From: Acidobacteriota bacterium
Lineage (GTDB): Bacteria; Acidobacteriota; UBA6911; RPQK01; JAJDTT01
Assembly: GCA_028874215.1 (NCBI GenBank)
Contig: JAPPLF010000028.1
Span: 1-64,000, forward strand
Direction of reading: 5' to 3'
DNA length: 64,000 bases
Below the pieces are notes generated by a model. It ran no database searches. It had not been told where the DNA came from and was given only the letters and a program-made list of their open reading frames with translations. Below, in pieces: positions 44,032 to 53,771 of the stretch. The position numbers and the translations under genes were made by a program. Within the stretch, counting starts at the first letter, position 1; each line of letters begins with the position of its first letter.

Positions 44032-44083
44032 TGATCGGGCGTTTGCGGGGTAGAGGCTGCCCCCGGTTTCGGTGGAGATCAAT

Positions 44084-45925
44084 TTGGCCATCGCACAGAC
44101 CCAAACCTTCGTTCCCCAGCAGGAAGGCGTCCAGACCAGCGTGGTGAACGACCTCAGTATTCAGGTCGCCACGGTGAACGGTTCCGGAAGCCAGAGCTCC
44201 AACAACGTGCTGATGCGGTCCATCTTCCAGATGGGCATCCCCACCAGCGGCAAGAACCTATTCCCCTCCAATATCGCGGGACTGCCCACGTGGTTCACCA
44301 TTCGCGCATCCAAACGAGGCTACGTCGGCTGCAAGCGGGAAGTGGACATCCTGATTGCGATGAACGTGCAGACGGCCCGTGAGGACGTGGAAACGCTGGA
44401 CCCGGGCCGGGTCGTGCTCTACGAAGAGCGTCTCAAGCTCTCCGGGATCCGGGATGACTTGATCTATTATCCCGTTCCGTTCAGCAAGTTGGCGGCGGAA
44501 GTGGTTCGGATTCCCAGACTGCGCAAGTTGGTGGCCAACATGGCCTACGTGGGTTCCGTGGCCGAGTTGCTGGGCATCGAGATGGAACAGGTGGAGGTGG
44601 CGATCGCCAAGTGGTTCAAGAAGAAGCAGAAAGCCATCGACCTGAACATCCGGATTGCCCACATGGGGGCTCAGTATGTGAGGGATCATCTTCCCAAGCG
44701 CGATCCGTACCGGCTGGAAAGGATGGACAAGACCCGGGGCAAGATCATCATCGACGGAAATTCCGCCTGCGCCCTCGGCGCCATGTTCGGTGGAGTCACC
44801 GTGGTGACCTGGTATCCCATCACCCCGGCCAGCAGTCTGGGAGAAGCTCTCACCAATTACCTGCAGCAGTATCGAACCGACCCCGAGACGGGAAAAGCCA
44901 CCTTTGCAGTCGTCCAGGCCGAGGATGAGTTGGCGGCCCTCGGTATGGCCATCGGGGCCGGATGGTCGGGCGCCAGATCCATGACTTCGACCTCGGGTCC
45001 GGGCATCTCGTTGATGAGCGAATTTACGGGACTGGCCTATTTTGCCGAGATCCCGTGCGTTATTTTCGACGTTCAGCGGGTCGGTCCCAGCACGGGCCTG
45101 CCGACACGCACCGCCCAGGGCGACATCCTGGCGTTGCACAGCCTCTCGCACGGGGACACGGCTCATCCTGTCCTGCTGCCCGGGGACATGGAGGAGTGTT
45201 TCGAGATGGCCCGGCAGGCTTTCGACCTGGCGGAGCGGCTGCAGCAGCCGGTCTTCGTCGGCTCGGATCTGGATCTGGGCATGAACAACTGGATGTGCGA
45301 TCCCTTCGAATATCCCACCGAGCCACCGGACAGGGGGAAGGTCCTGACGGCGGCCGACTTGGAGCGCGCCGGGGAGTTTGCCCGTTACCGCGACTTGGAC
45401 GGGGACGGAATCCCCTATCGCACGCTTCCGGGCACGGAACATCCCCTGGCCTCCTATTTCACCCGCGGGAGCGGCCACAACGACAGTGCCGGCTACAGTG
45501 AGCGGCCCGAGGACTACGTCCAGCTCATGGACCGTCTGAAGCGAAAGTACGATACGGCGAGGGAGCTGGTGCCGCAGCCCGTGGTCGACTTGCGAGAAGA
45601 GGCGGTGATCGGCATCATCGCCTACGGGTCGTCGGACTCGGCCATGGGGGAGTGCCGGGACCAGCTTCTTGAGGAGTTTGGGATCGAGATCAATTACCTC
45701 CGGCTTAGAGCCCTGCCGTTGAGTTCCGCGTTGAAGGACTTCGTCGCCGTTTGCCGGAGGGTATACGTCGTCGAGCAGAATCGGGACGGCCAGATGGCCG
45801 ATCTGATCCAACTGGAGTTGGGAGAGGCGGGCACCAAGATTCGCAAAATCTGTCACTACACCGGACTTCCGCTGGATGCCCGTTTCGTCACCGAACAGGT
45901 GATCGCTGCAGAGCGTCCATCCTGA
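44084..45925 (+). CDS. korA: 2-oxoacid:ferredoxin oxidoreductase, fused gamma-alpha subunit
   Basis: The TTG at 44084 is preferred because GGTGGAG stands 6 bases upstream; a GTG at 44072 is possible. The protein of about 613 residues begins with the gamma domain ('GSGSQSSNNVLMRSIFQMGIPTSGKNLFPSNI', about 25-60, in blocks). The alpha domain follows from about 215 ('DGNSACALGAMFGGVTVVTWYPITPASSLGEAL', 'STSGPGISLMSEFTGLAYFAEIP', 'GPSTGLPTRTAQGD'). With KorB it oxidatively decarboxylates 2-oxoacids, probably 2-oxoglutarate, reducing ferredoxin. The substrate is inferred from gene order only. Confidence 0.92.
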   Translation: MAIAQTQTFVPQQEGVQTSVVNDLSIQVATVNGSGSQSSNNVLMRSIFQMGIPTSGKNLFPSNIAGLPTWFTIRASKRGYVGCKREVDILIAMNVQTAREDVETLDPGRVVLYEERLKLSGIRDDLIYYPVPFSKLAAEVVRIPRLRKLVANMAYVGSVAELLGIEMEQVEVAIAKWFKKKQKAIDLNIRIAHMGAQYVRDHLPKRDPYRLERMDKTRGKIIIDGNSACALGAMFGGVTVVTWYPITPASSLGEALTNYLQQYRTDPETGKATFAVVQAEDELAALGMAIGAGWSGARSMTSTSGPGISLMSEFTGLAYFAEIPCVIFDVQRVGPSTGLPTRTAQGDILALHSLSHGDTAHPVLLPGDMEECFEMARQAFDLAERLQQPVFVGSDLDLGMNNWMCDPFEYPTEPPDRGKVLTAADLERAGEFARYRDLDGDGIPYRTLPGTEHPLASYFTRGSGHNDSAGYSERPEDYVQLMDRLKRKYDTARELVPQPVVDLREEAVIGIIAYGSSDSAMGECRDQLLEEFGIEINYLRLRALPLSSALKDFVAVCRRVYVVEQNRDGQMADLIQLELGEAGTKIRKICHYTGLPLDARFVTEQVIAAERPS

Positions 45926-45934
45926 AATTACACC

Positions 45935-46987
45935 ATGGCATTACGTACAAGGGCGCCAAGGAAGCCAAAGAAAACCAACCGTATCGGGTTGTCCCGCTCC
46001 GCCTACCGGGGTCACCCGTCGACGCTGTGCTCGGGGTGTGGCCACGACGCCATCACCAACCAGATTATCCGGGCCTTCTACGAGATCGGCGTCAACCCGT
46101 ACTCCGTGGCCAAGATGAGCGGCATCGGCTGCTCCAGCAAGACGCCGGCGTATTTCATGAACGCGTCGCATGGCTTCAACAGCGTCCACGGACGCATGCC
46201 TTCAGTCGCCACGGGAACCATGTTGGCGAATCGTGGTCTCGTCTGCATCGGGGTGAGCGGAGACGGGGACACGGCCTCCATCGGTCTGGGCCAGTTCTGC
46301 CATCTGCTGCGCCGCAACGTGCCAATGATCTACGTCATTGAGAACAATGGCGTCTACGGCCTCACCAAGGGGCAGTTCTCGGCGACCGCCGACGACGGCT
46401 CCACGCTCAAGACCGGTGTGGTCAACGAATTGCCGGCCATGGACTGCTGTTCGCTGGCGATCGAGATGGGGTGCTCCTACGTGGCTCGTTCGTTTGCCGG
46501 AGACCCCAAGCAACTGGTGGCGCTCTTGAAGGGGGCGCTCAGCCACAGTGGAACCGCCATGCTCGACGTGATCAGCCCCTGTGTGACCTTCAACAATCAT
46601 CCCGGATCGACCAAGAGTTACTCCTGGGCCAAGGAACATGAGGAGTTGCTGCACCAGATCGATTTCATCCCCGGCTTCGAGCCCATCGCCGCGGTGGATT
46701 ACCCGGAGGGTGAAGCGAGGGATGTGGAGATGCATGACGGGTCCGTCATCCGGCTGCGCAAGTTGGACATGGACTACGATCCCATGAATCGCCGGGAGGC
46801 CGTGCGCCTGCTCCACAGTTCCGCCGCTGACTCGGAACTGTTGACCGGTCTCATCTACGTCAATCCGGTGGCCAAGTCGTTCCTGGACACGCTGAACCTG
46901 TGTGACGAACCTCTGGTGTCGCTGCCCCACGAAAAGGTCAAGCCGGGTCCGGAGGTCCTGCAACAGGTCATGCAGGACCTGATGTAG
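45935..46987 (+). CDS. korB: 2-oxoacid:ferredoxin oxidoreductase, beta subunit
   Basis: The 350-residue protein holds thiamine diphosphate through 'GVSGDGDTASIGLGQFCHLLRRN' and 'YVIENNGVYGLTKGQ' in blocks. The N-terminal 'TLCSGCGHDAI' is the usual beta-subunit cysteine motif, with further cysteines (IGCSS) near residue 66 that can bind an iron-sulfur cluster. It lies 9 bases after korA, so the pair forms one operon and one enzyme. Confidence 0.94.
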   Translation: MALRTRAPRKPKKTNRIGLSRSAYRGHPSTLCSGCGHDAITNQIIRAFYEIGVNPYSVAKMSGIGCSSKTPAYFMNASHGFNSVHGRMPSVATGTMLANRGLVCIGVSGDGDTASIGLGQFCHLLRRNVPMIYVIENNGVYGLTKGQFSATADDGSTLKTGVVNELPAMDCCSLAIEMGCSYVARSFAGDPKQLVALLKGALSHSGTAMLDVISPCVTFNNHPGSTKSYSWAKEHEELLHQIDFIPGFEPIAAVDYPEGEARDVEMHDGSVIRLRKLDMDYDPMNRREAVRLLHSSAADSELLTGLIYVNPVAKSFLDTLNLCDEPLVSLPHEKVKPGPEVLQQVMQDLM

Positions 46988-47117
46988 TTCGCCCTCCGGC
47001 GGTCCGGCCGCTATCCGGTCCCTGACTTTCGAGCACCCCCCACTGTCGGCTCAGCCCTGGTCACAGGTCCGGCGGGTTCCCCCGGTCAATGCCAAGAGTC
47101 GGGCAAGGTCCGGTCGA

Positions 47118-47162
47118 TGTTCCACAACCCAAATCCGATCTCTGTGGAAAAGCTGTGGAAAA
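47118..47162 (+). promoter_or_regulatory. Cluster of DnaA-box matches upstream of the his regulator
   Basis: TGTGGAAAA occurs at 47143-47151 and again at 47154-47162, 11 bases apart, and matches the reverse complement of the DnaA-box consensus TTWTNCACA. A third, one-mismatch and inverted site TGTTCCACA lies at 47118-47126. The two perfect copies lie on the same face of the helix. The gap 46988-47282 holds no gene. Confidence 0.4.
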
Positions 47163-47232
47163 CCCTTTGGTCTACGCAAGAGGGGCAATGGCGCGCCGGT
47201 TCGGGACGGCCAGTGTCCGGTCATGAGGCGAC

Positions 47233-47261
47233 TTGCACGCCCCGCTGGTCTTCCGTGTTAT
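47233..47261 (+). promoter_or_regulatory. Candidate promoter of the his-operon regulator
   Basis: TTGCAC (47233-47238) and TGTTAT (47256-47261) are 17 bases apart. A transcript from here would begin within the operator-like palindrome at 47265-47282. Confidence 0.4.
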
Positions 47262-47264
47262 TTT

Positions 47265-47282
47265 GTGTTAACATGTTATCAC
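47265..47282 (+). promoter_or_regulatory. 18-bp operator-like palindrome abutting the regulator start codon
   Basis: GTGTTAACATGTTATCAC pairs with its own reverse complement at 8 of 9 positions, and the ATG of the TrpR/YerC-like gene follows at once (47283). It lies where transcription would start. TrpR-type repressors bind such palindromes, so autoregulation is a plausible reading. No Shine-Dalgarno sequence fits between it and the start codon. Confidence 0.55.
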
Positions 47283-47636
47283 ATGGAAACCATATTGGAG
47301 GAGAACGAGGCTCTCTGGGAGCTCTTCGACGCCATGTCCCGTCTCAAGGGCAGAGAGGAGTACGCCCTCTTCTTTCGAGATCTCTGTACCATGGGGGAAC
47401 TCACGGCCATGGCCGAACGTTGGCAGGTCGCCCGGTTGGTGGCGCGGGAGATCCCCTACCGGGAGATCCATCGGCTCACGGGAGTCAGCACGGCGACCAT
47501 CACCCGGATCGCCCATTGGCTTCGATACGGCGAAGGCGGCTACCGGTTGATGATCCGGCGATTGGGTGGAATCGAACCGCCGCAAGCGGGGTCCAAGGAG
47601 ATTCCCCACCGGCCCGGTCCGCCGGACGCCCGATAG
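47283..47636 (+). CDS. TrpR/YerC-YecD family transcriptional regulator
   Basis: The 117-residue product matches the TrpR-like YerC/YecD family: 'FFRDLCTMGELTAMAERWQVARLVAREIPYREI' then the helix-turn-helix 'HRLTGVSTATITRIAHWLRYGEGGY' (about 60-85), shown as separate blocks. The ATG at 47283 follows a palindrome and lacks a ribosome-binding site; an open frame back to 47223 is unsupported. The gene stands 138 bases before hisD on the same strand, so it probably regulates histidine genes or itself; the co-repressor is unknown. Confidence 0.85.
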   Translation: METILEENEALWELFDAMSRLKGREEYALFFRDLCTMGELTAMAERWQVARLVAREIPYREIHRLTGVSTATITRIAHWLRYGEGGYRLMIRRLGGIEPPQAGSKEIPHRPGPPDAR

Positions 47637-47650
47637 AAGAAGCAAAGGAG

Positions 47651-47740
47651 CGGCGGTTTCCGATCGCCGAACTCCAATGTGACAAACTTGGCGACGAAGA
47701 CTGGGCGATTGGAAATCGCCCCTCCTTTCTCTTGGAGGGG
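47651..47740 (+). repeat. Palindromic element cluster in front of hisD, including copy 2
   Basis: Three hairpins lie here. The first is CGGCGGTTTCCGATCGCCG (47651-47669). The second, GGGCGATTGGAAATCGCCC (47703-47721), is a near copy of the element in the E2 gene at 11878. The third pairs CCCCTCC (47719-47725) with GGAGGGG (47734-47740). The second and third share bases 47719-47721, so they exclude each other. This fits a dispersed palindromic repeat or an attenuator-like leader of hisD. Confidence 0.55.
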
Positions 47741-47774
47741 AGCGGAAACGACGGCAGAGCGCAGGTGCGTTGAG

Positions 47775-49088
47775 ATGAACGTTTACGACTATTCGCGGTT
47801 GTCCGGCAGACAGATCTCGAATCTTTGCCGCCGCAACCCCGTAGGAGACCCGGACCTTCTCAAGGTCTGCAGCCGGATTTTCTCGGCTGTCGAAGAGAAG
47901 GGTGACGATGCCGTCCGGGAGTACACCCTCCGATTCGACAGGGCGGAGATCCGGGAGCCCCGGGTCGCGAGGACGGAGTTCGAATCGGCCCTGGGACAGG
48001 TGTCGCCCGTCCGGCTGGAGGCCCTGCAACGGGCGGCGTCCAACATACGGGCGTTTCACGCCGCCCAGGGTCTGAGGGAAGGCATCCTGGAGGTGGAGCC
48101 GGGAATCACCTGCTGGCGGGAACAGCGGCCCATCGAAAGAGTCGGCCTCTATGTGCCGGGTGGAACGGCCGTCCTCCCTTCCACCGTTCTGATGCTTGGA
48201 GTCCCCGCAATGTTGGCCGGTTGTCCGCGAGTGGTCCTCTGCACGCCCCCGCGCGGCGACGGCTCGGTGACTCCCGAGGTTCTGGCGGCCGCGTCCATTG
48301 CCGGGGTCCGCGAGGTGTTCCGGATTGGCGGCGCCCAGGCCATCGCGGCCCTCTGTTTCGGCACCTCTTCGGTGCCCCGGGTGGACAAGATCCTGGGACC
48401 CGGCAGTCCCGTCGTTCAAACGGCCAAGCTGTTGGCCCAACAGCGGGGAGTCGCCATCGACATGGTGGCTGGTCCCAGCGAGGTCCTGGTGGTGGCGGAC
48501 GATACGGCTCGACCCGGCTTCGTGGCCGCGGACCTCATCTCCCAGGCCGAGCACGGAGCCGACAGCCTGGCCATTCTGGTCTCACCTTCGCTTGAGGTCA
48601 TCGATCGAGTCAAACGGGAATTGGACCTCCGCCTCGGGGACCTCCCACGGCGGGATATGGCAGCGGCGGCTCTGGGATCGAGTTTCGCAGTGCGGACCTC
48701 GTCGCTGGAGGAGGCCTTGGAGTTCGCCAATCGGTATGCGCCGGAGCACCTGATCCTTCAGGTGCGCGAGCCGAAACGATGGGTTGCACGGGTTCAAGCC
48801 GCCGGATCGGTCTTCCTGGGTCCCTGGTCTCCCGAGGTGGCGGGGGACTACGCCTCGGGGACCAACCACACGCTGCCCACCTCGGGTCTGGCCCGGAGTT
48901 TTTCGGGAGTCTCCCTGGACAGTTTCGTCAAGCAGATCACATTCCAGGAATTGAGCCGGCAAGGGCTCCGCTCGCTGGCCCCCACCTTGGAGGTGATGGC
49001 CGAGCTGGAACAGTTGGAGGGACATCGGCGGGCGGTCGAGGTGCGGATCGGAAGCGGGGAAGCCGGGCGGATTCCGGCGGGAGACTGA
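47775..49088 (+). CDS. hisD: Histidinol dehydrogenase
   Basis: The ATG at 47775 (MNVYDYSRLSGRQISNL) gives 437 residues; the open frame back to 47679 is not family-like. Motifs are 'GLYVPGGTAVLPSTVLML', 'RIGGAQAIAALCFGT', 'MVAGPSEVLVVAD', the zinc-site 'LISQAEHGADS' and 'ASGTNHTLPTSG', in blocks. It performs the last two oxidations of histidine synthesis. hisC follows 1 base after its stop. Confidence 0.95.
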   Translation: MNVYDYSRLSGRQISNLCRRNPVGDPDLLKVCSRIFSAVEEKGDDAVREYTLRFDRAEIREPRVARTEFESALGQVSPVRLEALQRAASNIRAFHAAQGLREGILEVEPGITCWREQRPIERVGLYVPGGTAVLPSTVLMLGVPAMLAGCPRVVLCTPPRGDGSVTPEVLAAASIAGVREVFRIGGAQAIAALCFGTSSVPRVDKILGPGSPVVQTAKLLAQQRGVAIDMVAGPSEVLVVADDTARPGFVAADLISQAEHGADSLAILVSPSLEVIDRVKRELDLRLGDLPRRDMAAAALGSSFAVRTSSLEEALEFANRYAPEHLILQVREPKRWVARVQAAGSVFLGPWSPEVAGDYASGTNHTLPTSGLARSFSGVSLDSFVKQITFQELSRQGLRSLAPTLEVMAELEQLEGHRRAVEVRIGSGEAGRIPAGD

Positions 49089-49089
49089 G

Positions 49090-50133
49090 ATGCAGGTACG
49101 CGAACTGGTGAGACGGAACATCCTGGAACTCAAGGCCTACCGGTCGGCCCGCGACGAAGTGCAGGAGGGTGTTCTGCTGGACGCCAACGAGAGTCCTTTC
49201 CCAGTGGACTGGCGGGGGATCCAACTGAACCGCTATCCGGATCCCAACCAGACCCGACTGAGGGAAGCGCTGGCGGCCTACACCGGCGCCCGTCCCGAGC
49301 AGGTGGTGGCCGGTTGCGGATCGGACGAGGTGTTGGACTGGATCTTCAAGATCTTCTGCCAGCCCGGTGAGGACCAGGTTGCCGTCGTCGAGCCCACCTA
49401 CGGGATGTACCGGGTCATGGCGCAGACCTTCGGAGTCTCTCTCGTCGAGTCGCGCCTGGACCGGGCCCAACGTCTCGATGCCGACGCCTTCCTGAAGGAG
49501 GTGCCGGCTTCGGTGAAGGTGGCGTTTCTCTGTTCCCCCAACAATCCGACCGGCGATCTTCTGGGAACCGGGCAGATTCTGAAGCTGTGCCGGGAATGGA
49601 AGGGGATCGTCGTGCTGGACGAGGCCTACGTGGAGTTCTCCGAGACTCCGTCTCTGGTCGAACAGGTGGAGGTCTATCCGAATCTGGTGGTGATGAGGAC
49701 GCTGTCGAAGGCGTTCGGCAGGGCGGCCCTGAGGCTGGGATACGCGGTGGCGAGCCCCCTGGTGACCTCTTTTTTCCTCAAGGTCAAGGCGCCCTACAAT
49801 CTCAGCTCGCTGGTGATGCAAAAGGGGTTGGAAGCCCTGGATGGTTGGGAGCGGCACAGGGACACCTGGCGGGGGATCCGCCGGGAGCGGGAGCGGTTGG
49901 CTCGAGAGCTGGCCGCGATTCCGGGCCTGGGGCGGATCTTTCCGTCTCAAAGCAATTTTCTCCTGTTCGACTGCCCTGGAGCCGGCTCCATCTGCAGGAA
50001 GCTCCGGGAGGCGGGTATCGTGGTCCGGGACCGCAGCGATCTGCCCGGGTTGTCCGAATGCATCCGGGTGAGCGTCGGCACTCGGGAGGAAAACGACCTG
50101 TTTCTGAGGGAGTTGCGTCGAATTCTGCCCTGA
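49090..50133 (+). CDS. hisC: Histidinol-phosphate aminotransferase
   Basis: The 347-residue fold-type I PLP enzyme has 'LDANESPFP', 'CGSDEVLDWIFKIFC', 'SPNNPTGDLL', 'VVLDEAYVEF' and the PLP lysine near residue 207 in 'RTLSKAFGRAALRLGY'. It transfers the amino group from glutamate to imidazole-acetol phosphate. The start at 49090 immediately follows hisD. Confidence 0.94.
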   Translation: MQVRELVRRNILELKAYRSARDEVQEGVLLDANESPFPVDWRGIQLNRYPDPNQTRLREALAAYTGARPEQVVAGCGSDEVLDWIFKIFCQPGEDQVAVVEPTYGMYRVMAQTFGVSLVESRLDRAQRLDADAFLKEVPASVKVAFLCSPNNPTGDLLGTGQILKLCREWKGIVVLDEAYVEFSETPSLVEQVEVYPNLVVMRTLSKAFGRAALRLGYAVASPLVTSFFLKVKAPYNLSSLVMQKGLEALDGWERHRDTWRGIRRERERLARELAAIPGLGRIFPSQSNFLLFDCPGAGSICRKLREAGIVVRDRSDLPGLSECIRVSVGTREENDLFLRELRRILP

Positions 50134-50174
50134 GTCTCCAGTCGTCCTCAGGGATCAACAGCGGAGAAAAAACG

Positions 50175-50768
50175 GTGAAGAGAACAGCATTGGTCGATCG
50201 AAAAACCAGAGAAACCCAGGTTCGGATCGAGCTGAATCTGGACGGCCAGGGCCGCTTCTCGGCCCGGTTGGAGGCCGGCTTCCTGAGTCACATGCTGGAG
50301 CTGTTGGCCTTGCACTCTTCCATGGATCTCCGGGTCCGGGGCGACGGAGACCTGCAGGTCGACGGCCATCACCTGATCGAGGACGTGGGGATCGTCCTGG
50401 GTCAGGCGTTGAAACAGGCCTTGGGAGAGAAGCGGGGAATCCGCCGCTACGGGTGGACATTGCTGCCCATGGACGAGGTCCTGGTGGCGGTGGCCCTGGA
50501 TCTGGGAGGCCGCTTCGCTTTCCATACCGACTACCGCCCCGCGAGAGAGAAAGTGGGAGACCTGGCCACCGAAATGGCGCCGCATTTCTTCCGGTCACTC
50601 GCCGTCGAGGCGGGCGCCAACCTCCACATCCAGTTCCTCAATCCGGGAGAGAACGAACACCATCGGATCGAGGCCATGTTCAAAGGATTCGGCCGGGCTC
50701 TGCGCACTGCCGTGAGTCTCGATCCCGACGCCGGAGGGAAGATCCCCTCCACCAAGGGGAGTCTATGA
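50175..50768 (+). CDS. hisB: Imidazoleglycerol-phosphate dehydratase
   Basis: A GTG at 50175 with GGAG 9 bases upstream gives 197 residues (monofunctional form). Both metal-binding repeats are present: 'VDGHHLIEDVGIVLGQAL' and 'GENEHHRIEAMFKGFGRAL'. It dehydrates imidazoleglycerol phosphate to imidazole-acetol phosphate. The phosphatase domain found in E. coli HisB is absent. It overlaps hisH by 4 bases (ATGA). Confidence 0.95.
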   Translation: MKRTALVDRKTRETQVRIELNLDGQGRFSARLEAGFLSHMLELLALHSSMDLRVRGDGDLQVDGHHLIEDVGIVLGQALKQALGEKRGIRRYGWTLLPMDEVLVAVALDLGGRFAFHTDYRPAREKVGDLATEMAPHFFRSLAVEAGANLHIQFLNPGENEHHRIEAMFKGFGRALRTAVSLDPDAGGKIPSTKGSL

Positions 50769-51388
50769 TCGTCGTCGTGGATTACGAGGCTGGAAATCTC
50801 TACAACGTGGGCAACGCCTTGGCCTATCTGGGTGTGGACTTCGTCTTTTCCGGGAATCCCGAGCGGGTCGCAAGGGCTTCCAAGGTGATCCTTCCCGGAG
50901 TGGGCTCGGCCCGGGCCGCCATGGATTCCTTGCGGGAGCAGGGACTGGTCCCGGTCATTCAACGGCTCCGGGTTCCGTTCCTGGGGATCTGCCTGGGTCT
51001 GCAGATCCTGTTCGACGTCTCCGACGAGGAGGACACCCCCTGTCTGGGGGTCATGGGCGGCCGCGTGCGGAGCTTCGACGATTCCAGGGTCAAGGTGCCT
51101 CATATCGGATGGAACCAGATCCGGCGCAGCGGTTCTTCGCCGGCCGAGGCGGGTGCAGGCAGGTTGCTCGACGGCATTCCTGACGATTCCTACTTCTATT
51201 TCGTGCACAGCTACTACGCTCCTTCCGGTTCGGCCGAGACGGTGGCGGTCACCGACTATTCCGGTTCCTTCGCCTCCATGGTTTCCCGGAAGAATTTCTG
51301 GGGCGTCCAGTTTCATCCGGAGCGGTCAGGCGAGCCGGGGCTCCGGGTGCTCAAGAACTTTGTCGCGGTGGGTGAGCCATGCTCGTAA
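50765..51388 (+). CDS. hisH: Imidazole glycerol phosphate synthase, glutaminase subunit
   Basis: The 207-residue class I amidotransferase has Cys76 in 'FLGICLGLQILF' and the 'GVQFHPERS' His-Glu pair. It delivers ammonia to HisF. The start ATG at 50765 overlaps the hisB stop, and the 3' end overlaps hisA by 10 bases, so the three are translationally coupled. Confidence 0.95.
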   Translation: MIVVVDYEAGNLYNVGNALAYLGVDFVFSGNPERVARASKVILPGVGSARAAMDSLREQGLVPVIQRLRVPFLGICLGLQILFDVSDEEDTPCLGVMGGRVRSFDDSRVKVPHIGWNQIRRSGSSPAEAGAGRLLDGIPDDSYFYFVHSYYAPSGSAETVAVTDYSGSFASMVSRKNFWGVQFHPERSGEPGLRVLKNFVAVGEPCS

Positions 51389-52098
51389 TCCCGGCCATCG
51401 ATCTGGTGGATGGAAAATGCGTGCGCCTGGTTCGAGGCGAATTCCATCGCCAGAAGGTCTACTCGGGGGACCCGGTGGACCAGGCCCTGGAGTTCCAGGA
51501 GGCGGGTCTGACGCGAATTCACGTGGTGGACCTGGAAGGCGCCCGCTTTGGGGAAGGCCGCAACCGGAATTCGATCCGCAGGATTCTCTCCCGAGTGCGG
51601 GCCACCGTCCAGATCGGCGGCGGCATTCGTGAGGAAGCGGATGTCTCCCAGCTCCTGGACTGGGGCGCCGGCCATCTGATCCTCGGCACGTCGGTCCTGG
51701 AGACCCCGGAAAGGGTGGAGGGATGGATCTCCAAATGGGGACCCTCTCCCTTCATCGTGAGTGTCGACCTGCGCCGCGGCCGCCTCCAGGCGCAGGGTTG
51801 GGAGCGGGAGAGCAGCCTGGCGTTGGAGGCCGTGCTCCGGAGAATTCTGGACTGGGGCATCGAGCAGATCATCTGCACCGACGTGGAACAGGACGGAATG
51901 CTCAAACGCCCCGGGTACGCAGCCTGCCGGACAATCTTGGGATTGTTGCCTGCTCACGTGTTGCTGGTGGCGGCCGGCGGCGTCACGACACCCGGGCACC
52001 TTTCCAGGCTCGACGGAATGGGTGTGGGGGGAGCCATTATCGGCCGGGCGTTCTACGAGGGGAAGATCTCATTGGAGGAGATGGCTCGTGTTGGCTAA
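51379..52098 (+). CDS. hisA: ProFAR isomerase
   Basis: The 239-residue beta/alpha barrel starts '[17 protein letters not shown]' with the catalytic Asp8. It also has 'TVQIGGGIR', 'GTSVLETPE', '[13 protein letters not shown]' (second catalytic Asp) and '[12 protein letters not shown]'. It isomerises the aminoaldose of ProFAR to the aminoketose. Coupled with hisH and hisF by overlaps. Confidence 0.95.
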
Positions 52099-52864
52099 GC
52101 GCATCATTCCGTGCCTCGACGTCGCTGGCGGGCGCGTGGTCAAAGGCATCCATTTCGTGGACCTGAGGGATGCCGGGGACCCGGTGGAGCTGGGCCGGCG
52201 GTATTACCGGGAGGGAGCGGACGAGTTGGTGTTCCTGGACATCACCGCAACCGTCGAGGAGCGGAAGACGACCCTGCACTGGGTCCGAAGAGTCGCCGAC
52301 TCCATCTTCATACCCTTTACCGTCGGAGGAGGGATCACCTCGCTGGCGCGAATCCGGGAACTGCTTCGGGCGGGGGCCGACAAGGTGTCCATGAACAGCG
52401 CGGCGGTCAAGCGGCCGGAACTGATCCGGGAATCCTCCCGGGCCTTCGGCGCCCAATGCATCGTGCTGGCGGTGGACGTGAAACGGCACGGAAAGTCGTG
52501 GAAGGTCTACATCGGGGGCGGACGCTACGAGACCGATTGGGACGGTTTGGAATGGATCCGGCGAGGCGCCGAGCTGGGGGCCGGCGAGATTCTCCTCACC
52601 TCCATGGATCGTGACGGGACCCAGTCCGGATACGACCTGGAGTTGTTGCAGAAGGTCGATTCACTGGTCCGGATTCCGGTCATCGCCTCGGGCGGAGCCG
52701 GTTCTCCGCAACATCTCTTGGACGGGGTCCGGATCGGACGGGCCGACGCCATCCTCGCGGCCAGCATCTTCCATTACGACCAGTACTCCATCGCCGCCGT
52801 GAAGGAGTTCCTGGCGGAACGCGGAATCCCGGTTCGTCCGGTTCCCCGGGTCGCCGCCAAGTGA
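52088..52864 (+). CDS. hisF: Imidazole glycerol phosphate synthase, cyclase subunit
   Basis: Reading starts at a GTG at 52088, with GGAGGAG 7 bases upstream. The 258-residue barrel has the first catalytic Asp11 in '[16 protein letters not shown]'; the second is in '[14 protein letters not shown]'. '[11 protein letters not shown]' and '[13 protein letters not shown]' also match. With HisH it forms imidazoleglycerol phosphate and AICAR. It is the last his gene here; the hisI/hisE functions are not adjacent. Confidence 0.96.
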
Positions 52865-52865
52865 C

Positions 52866-53771
52866 TCAGTTCTCAATCATCCCGTCCGGATGCCGGCCCG
52901 TGATGAACGCCTGCACGAAGGGGTCGGATGAGGAGTAAAGCGCCTCCAGGTCTCCTTCGAAATGGATACGGCCGTCCTTGAGCAGAATGATCCGGTCGGA
53001 CACGGTGGCCAGACACTGCAGGTCGTGGGTGACCACCACCGAGGTGAGGTTGTTCTGGAGGTTCAGCTTGCGGATCAGGCGGGACAGCGTCTTGCCGATC
53101 ATGGGGTCCACCCCCGTGGTGGGCTCGTCGTAAAGGATCGCCTCAGGATTGGTGGCGATGGCGCGAGCGATCGCCACCTGCTTCTTGGAGCCCAAGCTCA
53201 ACTCGTCGTACTCCTGGTCTCCCATCCCTTCCAGCTCCACGGCGTCCAACAACTCTTCGACACGCCGGTCGATCTGCTCCTCGTCCGCCATGCCCCGTTC
53301 CCGCAAGGGAAAGGCGATGTTCTCGCCCACGCTGAGAAAATCGAAGACGGCGCCGCTTTGGAAGACGTAGGAGACCCGTCTGCGAACGTCCAGCAGGTCA
53401 CTTTCACTCATCTCTTCCAGACTCCGGCCCTTGAAACGAATTTCGCCCTGGTCCGGCCAGAGCAACCCGACGATGAGCTGGAGCATGACGCTCTTGCCGC
53501 CCCCGCTCATCCCCAGGATCCCCAGGGTTTCGGCGCGTTGGATCTTCAAGCTCACCCGGTTCAGGACTTTCTGTGAGCCAAAGGATTTGTAGACGTCGTT
53601 CAACTCGATGAGGGGGAGGGAGGACTCCTGCGGCGCCGGCTCGGAAGGACTCGAGGCGACGCCAGCGGAAACGGTCCGTGCCCACCGGCGCCTTCTGATC
53701 GCCAGGATCAGCAAAGCGAGAGCCAGCGCCAGAAGGCTGCAGACAAGAACAAGAAGGGGGCTGTTGAACAT
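52866..53771 (-). CDS. MlaF-like ABC transporter ATPase with an N-terminal membrane anchor
   Basis: The 301-residue ATPase starts with a hydrophobic helix (about 5-25) and an Arg-rich turn, unusual for an ATPase subunit. The nucleotide domain follows: Walker A at 87-94 (GMSGGGKS), Q-loop 'VFQSGAVFDFLSVGENIAFPL', and Walker B 'AILYDEP' at 211-217. The signature reads LSLGS (191-195) instead of LSGGx. The Q-loop sequence is that of the MlaF/Ttg2A family, which moves phospholipids between membranes. The MlaE and MlaD partners are not in the window. It is convergent with hisF, 1 base away. Confidence 0.82.
   Translation of the reverse strand: MFNSPLLVLVCSLLALALALLILAIRRRRWARTVSAGVASSPSEPAPQESSLPLIELNDVYKSFGSQKVLNRVSLKIQRAETLGILGMSGGGKSVMLQLIVGLLWPDQGEIRFKGRSLEEMSESDLLDVRRRVSYVFQSGAVFDFLSVGENIAFPLRERGMADEEQIDRRVEELLDAVELEGMGDQEYDELSLGSKKQVAIARAIATNPEAILYDEPTTGVDPMIGKTLSRLIRKLNLQNNLTSVVVTHDLQCLATVSDRIILLKDGRIHFEGDLEALYSSSDPFVQAFITGRHPDGMIEN

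What the first reader, a model, noticed from the sequence alone, without database searches (positions are those of the whole stretch)
47265..47282. Near-perfect operator-like palindrome directly on the start of the his-linked TrpR/YerC regulator
GTGTTAACATGTTATCAC has 8 of 9 symmetric pairs, abuts the ATG at 47283, and overlaps the predicted transcription start of a TTGCAC-N17-TGTTAT promoter. No Shine-Dalgarno is seen, so the transcript may be nearly leaderless. Together this suggests an autorepressed gene. TrpR-family control of histidine genes is not a well-known pathway.
Basis: partly seen in the sequence, partly recalled or inferred. Interest (0 to 1): 0.55.

Follow-up and report, generated by a model that had tools for sequence, protein, structure and literature searches.

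The report
Histidine repressor's own binding site
The symmetric DNA sequence at the start of this gene is very probably the docking site of HisR, a repressor already described in other bacteria that is thought to shut down its own gene and the histidine-making genes behind it; here it turns up in an acidobacterium, so the finding is real but of a known kind.

Summary
The palindrome is real and one base longer on each side than reported: 47264-47283, TGTGTTAACATGTTATCACA, 9 of 10 pairs, including the A of the ATG. Such palindromes are not rare in themselves (3 in the window, 3.7 expected). Comparison makes it convincing: motif models trained only on sequence upstream of hisR in 35 gammaproteobacterial, 26 actinobacterial or 12 same-order (other genera) loci each rank this site first of 63,981 window positions. 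New details: HisR in an Acidobacteriota order; hisI-hisG lie elsewhere, without a detectable site, in this genus (4 of 4 genomes); a dispersed repeat sits between hisR and hisD in this genome and not in three congeners. DNA binding, effector and promoter were not tested; the promoter is weak by consensus.

The parts
47264..47283 (.). 20-bp palindromic HisR operator TGTGTTAACATGTTATCACA; includes the first base of the start codon
   Evidence: 9/10 pairs; ranked 1 of 63,981 by motif models trained on other taxa; identical in 2 of 3 congeners, 3 changes in the third
47283..47636 (+). hisR (YerC/YecD-type TrpR-family repressor), 117 aa
   Evidence: PF01371 82.5 bits and TIGR02531 82.4 bits, both over cut-off; start ATG aligns with the ATG of most relatives of the order; only Trp_repressor match in the genome
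47233..47238 (+). possible -35 (TTGCAC), 3 of 6 to consensus
   Evidence: sequence; not kept in two of three congeners
47256..47264 (+). possible -10: TGTTAT at 47256-47261, or extended -10 TG-T-TATTTT at 47256-47264 (TG-T-TATATT in two congeners)
   Evidence: sequence and alignment; inference
47775..49088 (+). hisD, first enzyme gene behind hisR
   Evidence: TIGR00069 491.6 bits, cut-off 243.8
49090..50133 (+). hisC
   Evidence: TIGR01141 345.1 bits, cut-off 276.55
50175..50768 (+). hisB
   Evidence: NF002111 240.2 bits, cut-off 231
50765..51388 (+). hisH
   Evidence: TIGR01855 198.5 bits, cut-off 105.4
51379..52098 (+). hisA
   Evidence: TIGR00007 229.6 bits, cut-off 228.95
52088..52864 (+). 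hisF
   Evidence: TIGR00735 369.2 bits, cut-off 294.55
47595..47716 (.). stretch between hisR and hisD absent from three congeners (borders approximate); holds most of a dispersed inverted-repeat element and goes with a hisR reading frame 12 codons longer than theirs
   Evidence: alignment A1; 61 matches to 47640-47745 in the genome, itself included, some of them overlapping or short; hairpin of 47630-47780, z -2.9

Best explanation
The palindrome is the operator of HisR, the histidine-responsive TrpR-family repressor encoded directly behind it. Two HisR subunits read the two half-sites (TGTnnTA and its complement, 6 bp apart). When histidine is plentiful, HisR with histidine bound would sit on the transcription start region and block transcription of hisR and the following hisDCBHAF genes, a simple negative feedback loop. 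Shown here: the site, its conservation and position, the family of the protein, the gene order. Inferred from the published HisR work and from position: DNA binding, histidine as corepressor, repression by blocking RNA polymerase, and co-transcription of hisR with hisD.
For: Palindromic motif models from hisR upstream regions of 35 gammaproteobacterial, 26 actinobacterial and 12 same-order loci each put 47264 first of 63,981 window positions (29.3, 19.0, 27.7 bits; best non-overlapping site -0.6, 13.2 and 8.0 bits). Of 5 control models (4 shuffled, 1 coding) none gives rank 1, though one shuffled model gives rank 2. The gammaproteobacterial motif found here, TGTAnTAgCgcGcTAnTACA, agrees in length and outer bases with the published proteobacterial HisR consensus TGTAnTArnnnnyTnTTACA. 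The site has no other match in the genome at up to 3 mismatches and is the sole match of TGTNNTAN6TANNACA in each of three congeners; the own genome has one further match. TIGR02531 over cut-off. All three PDB hits are TrpR-like proteins, one of them 3G1C, the structure the HisR paper uses. hisR has hisD downstream on the same strand in 26 of 26 actinobacterial and 30 of 35 gammaproteobacterial loci fetched. The R. gnavus HisR binds its 20-bp site better with histidine.
Against: No binding, expression or effector data for this organism. The promoter is weak by consensus (7/12), its -35 is not conserved in the genus, and the only promoter-like site listed by the scan lies elsewhere, across the start codon. 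In this genome a hairpin-forming repeat lies between hisR and hisD, so how far repression reaches the his genes is uncertain. hisG and hisI lie elsewhere without a detectable site. Genome-wide the pattern TGTNNTAN6TANNACA is hardly commoner than its reversed control in the 18 genomes of the order (17 vs 15 places; 8 of the 17 are hisR sites), so only the position at hisR carries weight. The sequences behind the motif models are related to one another, so their scores are not independent tests.
Confidence: 0.9

Rival explanations
1. HisR binds the site but controls only hisR itself in this genome; hisDCBHAF are transcribed mainly from another start, because the repeat element between hisR and hisD ends or cleaves the transcript.
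For: A stretch of about 122 bp absent from three congeners, a strong hairpin (-57.2 kcal/mol for 47630-47780, z -2.9) and a terminator-like site at 47703-47721.
Against: One terminator-like site is about what shuffles give (0.8 expected). No promoter-like site was listed between the element and hisD. In three congeners hisR and hisD lie about 45-60 bp apart without the element.
Confidence: 0.15
2. The site is a TrpR operator answering to tryptophan.
For: Same Pfam family and similar 20-bp operator geometry; weak TrpR model hit (28 bits).
Against: Below the TrpR cut-off of 67.25 and well over the YerC/YecD one; his genes follow; no second copy of the site in the genome at up to 3 mismatches. 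trp genes were not looked for.
Confidence: 0.03
3. A chance palindrome in an AT-rich promoter region.
For: Three 20-bp palindromes of this quality in 64 kb, 3.7 expected; local GC 46% against 63%.
Against: Similar motif at the same place in 4 of 4 genus members and in relatives of other phyla; rank 1 by three models that never saw it.
Confidence: 0.03

Closest known systems
HisR regulon of Proteobacteria (Ashniev et al. 2022, PMC9413887)
   Different: Here in an Acidobacteriota order; the paper's text holds no word beginning 'acidobacteri'. hisG and hisI are outside the hisR operon in this genus. The site includes the first base of the start codon
HisR of Firmicutes, Actinobacteria and Synergistetes (same paper)
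   Same: Inner TTTA-N6-TAAA resembles the motif of the other genera of this order (TGTTTTAaCatGtTAAAACA)
   Different: Published outer bases are cac/gtg, here TGT/ACA; in most Firmicutes genomes hisR is not clustered with his genes
TrpR and the trp operator of E. coli
   Same: Pfam family; dyad of about 20 bp; many hisR upstream regions in relatives carry three or four TA steps 8 bp apart, which recalls the tandem TrpR sites of the trp operator (recalled, no call)
   Different: Target pathway and presumed effector; fails the TrpR family cut-off

Membership tests
HisR (YerC/YecD TrpR-family histidine repressor) | Protein matches PF01371 / TIGR02531 over curated cut-off | tested here: met
   82.5 vs 27 bits and 82.4 vs 42.2 bits
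HisR (YerC/YecD TrpR-family histidine repressor) | 20-bp palindromic operator upstream of hisR or his genes | tested here: met
   47264-47283; rank 1 by models from other taxa
HisR (YerC/YecD TrpR-family histidine repressor) | Gene linked to histidine genes (proteobacterial arrangement) | tested here: met
   followed by hisD, C, B, H, A, F, each over an NCBIfam cut-off
HisR (YerC/YecD TrpR-family histidine repressor) | Recognition helix with the conserved Ala80, Thr81, Arg84 (TrpR numbering) | tested here: met
   STATITRI aligned without gap to STATISRV of 3G1C; residue numbers from the paper, register by eye
HisR (YerC/YecD TrpR-family histidine repressor) | Operator overlaps the promoter of the controlled gene | tested here: inconclusive
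   candidate promoter weak and not conserved; scan lists another one
HisR (YerC/YecD TrpR-family histidine repressor) | Histidine-dependent DNA binding | not testable with these tools
   Shown in the paper for the R. gnavus protein only
TrpR tryptophan repressor | TIGR01321 over cut-off | tested here: not met
   28 vs 67.25 bits
TrpR tryptophan repressor | Operator at trp genes | not tested
   trp genes were not located

The most novel reading that the evidence does not exclude
In this genus the histidine repressor has been cut off from the first enzyme of the pathway: hisG (with hisI) stands outside the HisR-controlled operon, so feedback by HisR acts only on later steps, and in this one genome a dispersed repeat has further separated hisR from hisD and changed the repressor's tail. 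The circuit may be turning into a repressor that mainly controls itself.
Probability: 0.2. Interest if true: 0.4.

Novelty: new member of a known kind. Interest (0 to 1): 0.22.

Why it matters
It extends a known amino-acid repressor and its operator type to an Acidobacteriota order and gives a ready motif (TGTnnTA-N6-TAnnACA at the start codon) for regulon prediction there. The split of hisG and hisI from the HisR operon in one genus is a small natural experiment on how feedback circuits are rewired.

Tried and rejected
Chance palindrome: rejected by cross-taxon motif models, although the palindrome count alone is at chance level. TrpR/tryptophan: rejected on family cut-offs. RNA regulator (T-box, his leader) near the operon: no Rfam match at gathering score in 46000-53000.

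Other HisR sites in the genome: the degenerate pattern YGTKWTAN6TAWMACR with one mismatch gave one further place (C80:160772; reversed control 4 places against 2), read in sequence; the best order-model score anywhere in that locus is 3.7 bits. TGTNNTAN6TANNACA gave one other (C80:153015; reversed control 1), 4.2 bits by the gammaproteobacterial model; 236 bp from it the order model finds a 12.1-bit site, which lies just before a gene pair that looks like an antitoxin-toxin pair by eye, not histidine genes. In that search of the 18 genomes of the order the pattern occurs at 17 places against 15 for the control, 8 of the 17 being hisR sites. hisI-hisG loci of the four genus members: best scores 0.8 bits or less by the order and gammaproteobacterial models in stretches of 5.0-5.5 kb.

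An origin near the DnaA-box-like pair: no clear GC-skew switch in the window. Tandem three-half-site array in the window itself: not present (two TA steps in 8-bp register; three in each of three congeners because of a TATA in the -10-like stretch). Literature: 44 papers held at least three of Acidobacteri-, HisR, histidine, TrpR; 12 were listed, none of the 12 holding 'acidobacteri'.

Controls that went partly the other way: of 4 motif models trained on shuffled gammaproteobacterial sequence, one ranked the window site second with 10.9 bits. TA steps at lags other than 8 and 16 (3, 5, 11, 19) are also over-represented in the gammaproteobacterial and actinobacterial groups, so the 8-bp period is clean only in the Acidobacteriota set. 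Chains of TA steps had no shuffle control of their own. A tree of 81 HisR rows joins genus, order and actinobacterial rows at weak support (80/81) and was not used.

Groups were set by record title and number: the 26 'actinobacterial' loci include L075, titled Acidobacteria, and the 35 'gammaproteobacterial' loci include L080, titled Klebsiella pneumoniae, and loci titled only Proteobacteria. Start codons outside the order were chosen by script; in seven actinobacterial loci it took a GTG inside the likely frame. L073 and L080 were left out of the tree.

Full report
Observation. The sequence GTGTTAACATGTTATCAC stands at 47265-47282 directly before the ATG at 47283. One more complementary pair flanks it, giving the 20-bp palindrome TGTGTTAACATGTTATCACA, 47264-47283, with 9 of 10 pairs; its last base is the A of the start codon. 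By number alone such palindromes are ordinary: three in the window with 3.7 expected from 20 dinucleotide shuffles. In the 313 bp from the end of the upstream gene to just past the ATG, 1.3% of 2000 shuffles hold one. The site has no second match at up to 3 mismatches in the held 5.7-Mb genome.

The gene. 47283-47636 encodes 117 residues matching PF01371 (82.5 bits, cut-off 27) and TIGR02531, YerC/YecD (82.4 bits, cut-off 42.2); the TrpR model gives 28 bits against a cut-off of 67.25. It is the only Trp_repressor match in the genome. Its three solved relatives at E up to 0.001 are TrpR-like proteins, among them 3G1C, which the HisR paper uses as the HisR structure. hisD, C, B, H, A and F follow on the same strand, each over the cut-off of an NCBIfam model.

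Comparison. Of 100 genomes searched, own included, 19 have a match: 17 of 18 in the same order (own included), 0 of 20 others in the same class, and 2 of 62 others in the phylum, one of these weak. The upstream regions of orthologues carry a similar element at or near the start codon. In 3 of 4 genus members, the window included, the 20 bp are identical; in the fourth there are three changes.

Independent test. A palindromic 20-bp motif model was trained without any genus member. From 35 gammaproteobacterial loci it gave TGTAnTAgCgcGcTAnTACA; from 26 actinobacterial loci CATAgTAGCATGCTAcTATG; from 12 other-genus loci of the same order TGTTTTAaCatGtTAAAACA. Each ranks 47264 first of 63,981 window positions, with 29.3, 19.0 and 27.7 bits; the best non-overlapping sites score -0.6, 13.2 and 8.0 bits. 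Models trained on shuffled sequence (4) gave ranks 2, 38064, 51789 and 22198, on coding sequence (1) rank 47152. The single unpaired position of the window site is an undetermined position of the gammaproteobacterial motif.

Architecture. TA steps 8 bp apart are strongly over-represented upstream of hisR in all three groups (17 Acidobacteriota loci: 33 vs 3.1 expected; 35 gammaproteobacterial: 89 vs 14.1; 26 actinobacterial: 43 vs 9.0), and so are steps 16 bp apart (16 vs 2.5, 36 vs 12.2, 20 vs 7.3); in the last two groups other lags are raised as well. Eight bp is the distance between the two half-sites of one palindrome; a chain of three or more such steps occurs in 9 of 12 same-order loci, 25 of 35 gammaproteobacterial and 12 of 26 actinobacterial ones, which suggests overlapping sites for more than one dimer. 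The window has a chain of two, that is one dimer site. No Shine-Dalgarno-like tetramer (GGAG, GAGG, AGGA) lies before the start in 17 of 17 Acidobacteriota, 26 of 26 actinobacterial and 31 of 35 gammaproteobacterial loci (starts as chosen by script). Within the window hisD, hisA and the upstream gene lack one too by the same test and hisC has one, so absence is weak evidence. The promoter TTGCAC-N17-TGTTAT is present but weak; an extended -10 (TG-T-TATATT in two congeners, TG-T-TATTTT here) is an alternative, and both would put the transcription start inside the operator (inference). The consensus scan lists neither and instead TTAACA-N17-CATATT across the start codon.

Regulon. In 13 of 13 hisR-bearing genomes of other genera of the order, hisG follows hisR on the same contig (one cut by the contig end; places). 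In 4 of 4 genus members it does not: hisI and hisG are together at another place, and no HisR-like site is found in the 5.0-5.5 kb around them. TGTNNTAN6TANNACA matches only the hisR site in each of three congeners and one other place in the own genome. HisR control in this genus thus appears confined to its own operon, as far as these patterns can see; transporters were not looked at.

The gap to hisD. Against three congeners the window carries about 122 extra bp between hisR and hisD, and a hisR frame of 117 instead of 105 codons. The DNA 47640-47745 has 61 matches in this genome, itself included, and folds strongly. Whether transcription passes it is unknown.

Known or new. The HisR system is published (PMC9413887; read: abstract, sections 5, 6, 9, 11 and term passages): TrpR family, 20-bp palindromes, histidine-stimulated binding shown for the R. 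[quoted passage not shown] The window is the same arrangement in an Acidobacteriota order, a phylum that the paper's text does not name. I therefore file it as a new member of a known kind, interest low.

Noticed in passing
window 47595-47774: About 122 bp between hisR and hisD are absent from three congeners; they hold most of an inverted-repeat element with 61 matches in this genome, some in tandem, and form a strong hairpin. The hisR frame here is 12 codons longer than in the congeners.
   Followed up: partly
window 47143-47162: Two DnaA-box-like TTTTCCACA sequences (minus strand) 11 bp apart; the pair has one exact copy in the genome, this one, and is kept with one to a few changes in three congeners. 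The window has no other TTWTCCACA.
   Followed up: partly
G000:C100:80902-81845 (L135): hisI-hisG locus away from the his operon, behind a gene for what looks by eye like a PLP-type enzyme; same in three congeners.
   Followed up: partly
L110 (G009), L111 (G005), L112 (G017): Three same-order genomes carry a second hisG-family gene or piece outside the hisR-hisG place, perhaps akin to the form kept in the window's genus.
   Followed up: no
L027-L050 (without L037), L075-L077: In actinobacterial loci hisA is divergent from hisR, so one operator region lies between both; the TTGCAT -35-like hexamer may overlap the hisA start on the other strand. The -10-like hexamer ends 6 nt before the chosen hisR start in 18 of 26, suggesting a leaderless hisR.
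   Followed up: no
window 44072-46987: The two genes upstream of hisR are 2-oxoacid:acceptor oxidoreductase subunits (alpha over the TIGR03710 cut-off, beta below the TIGR02177 one); relatives of them also lie upstream of hisR in three congeners and in L012, L014 (beta only in the stretch held) and L025.
   Followed up: partly
L139 1737-1756 (G000:C80): A 12.1-bit match to the order-level HisR motif just before a gene pair that looks like an antitoxin and a RES-type toxin by eye; probably chance.
   Followed up: partly
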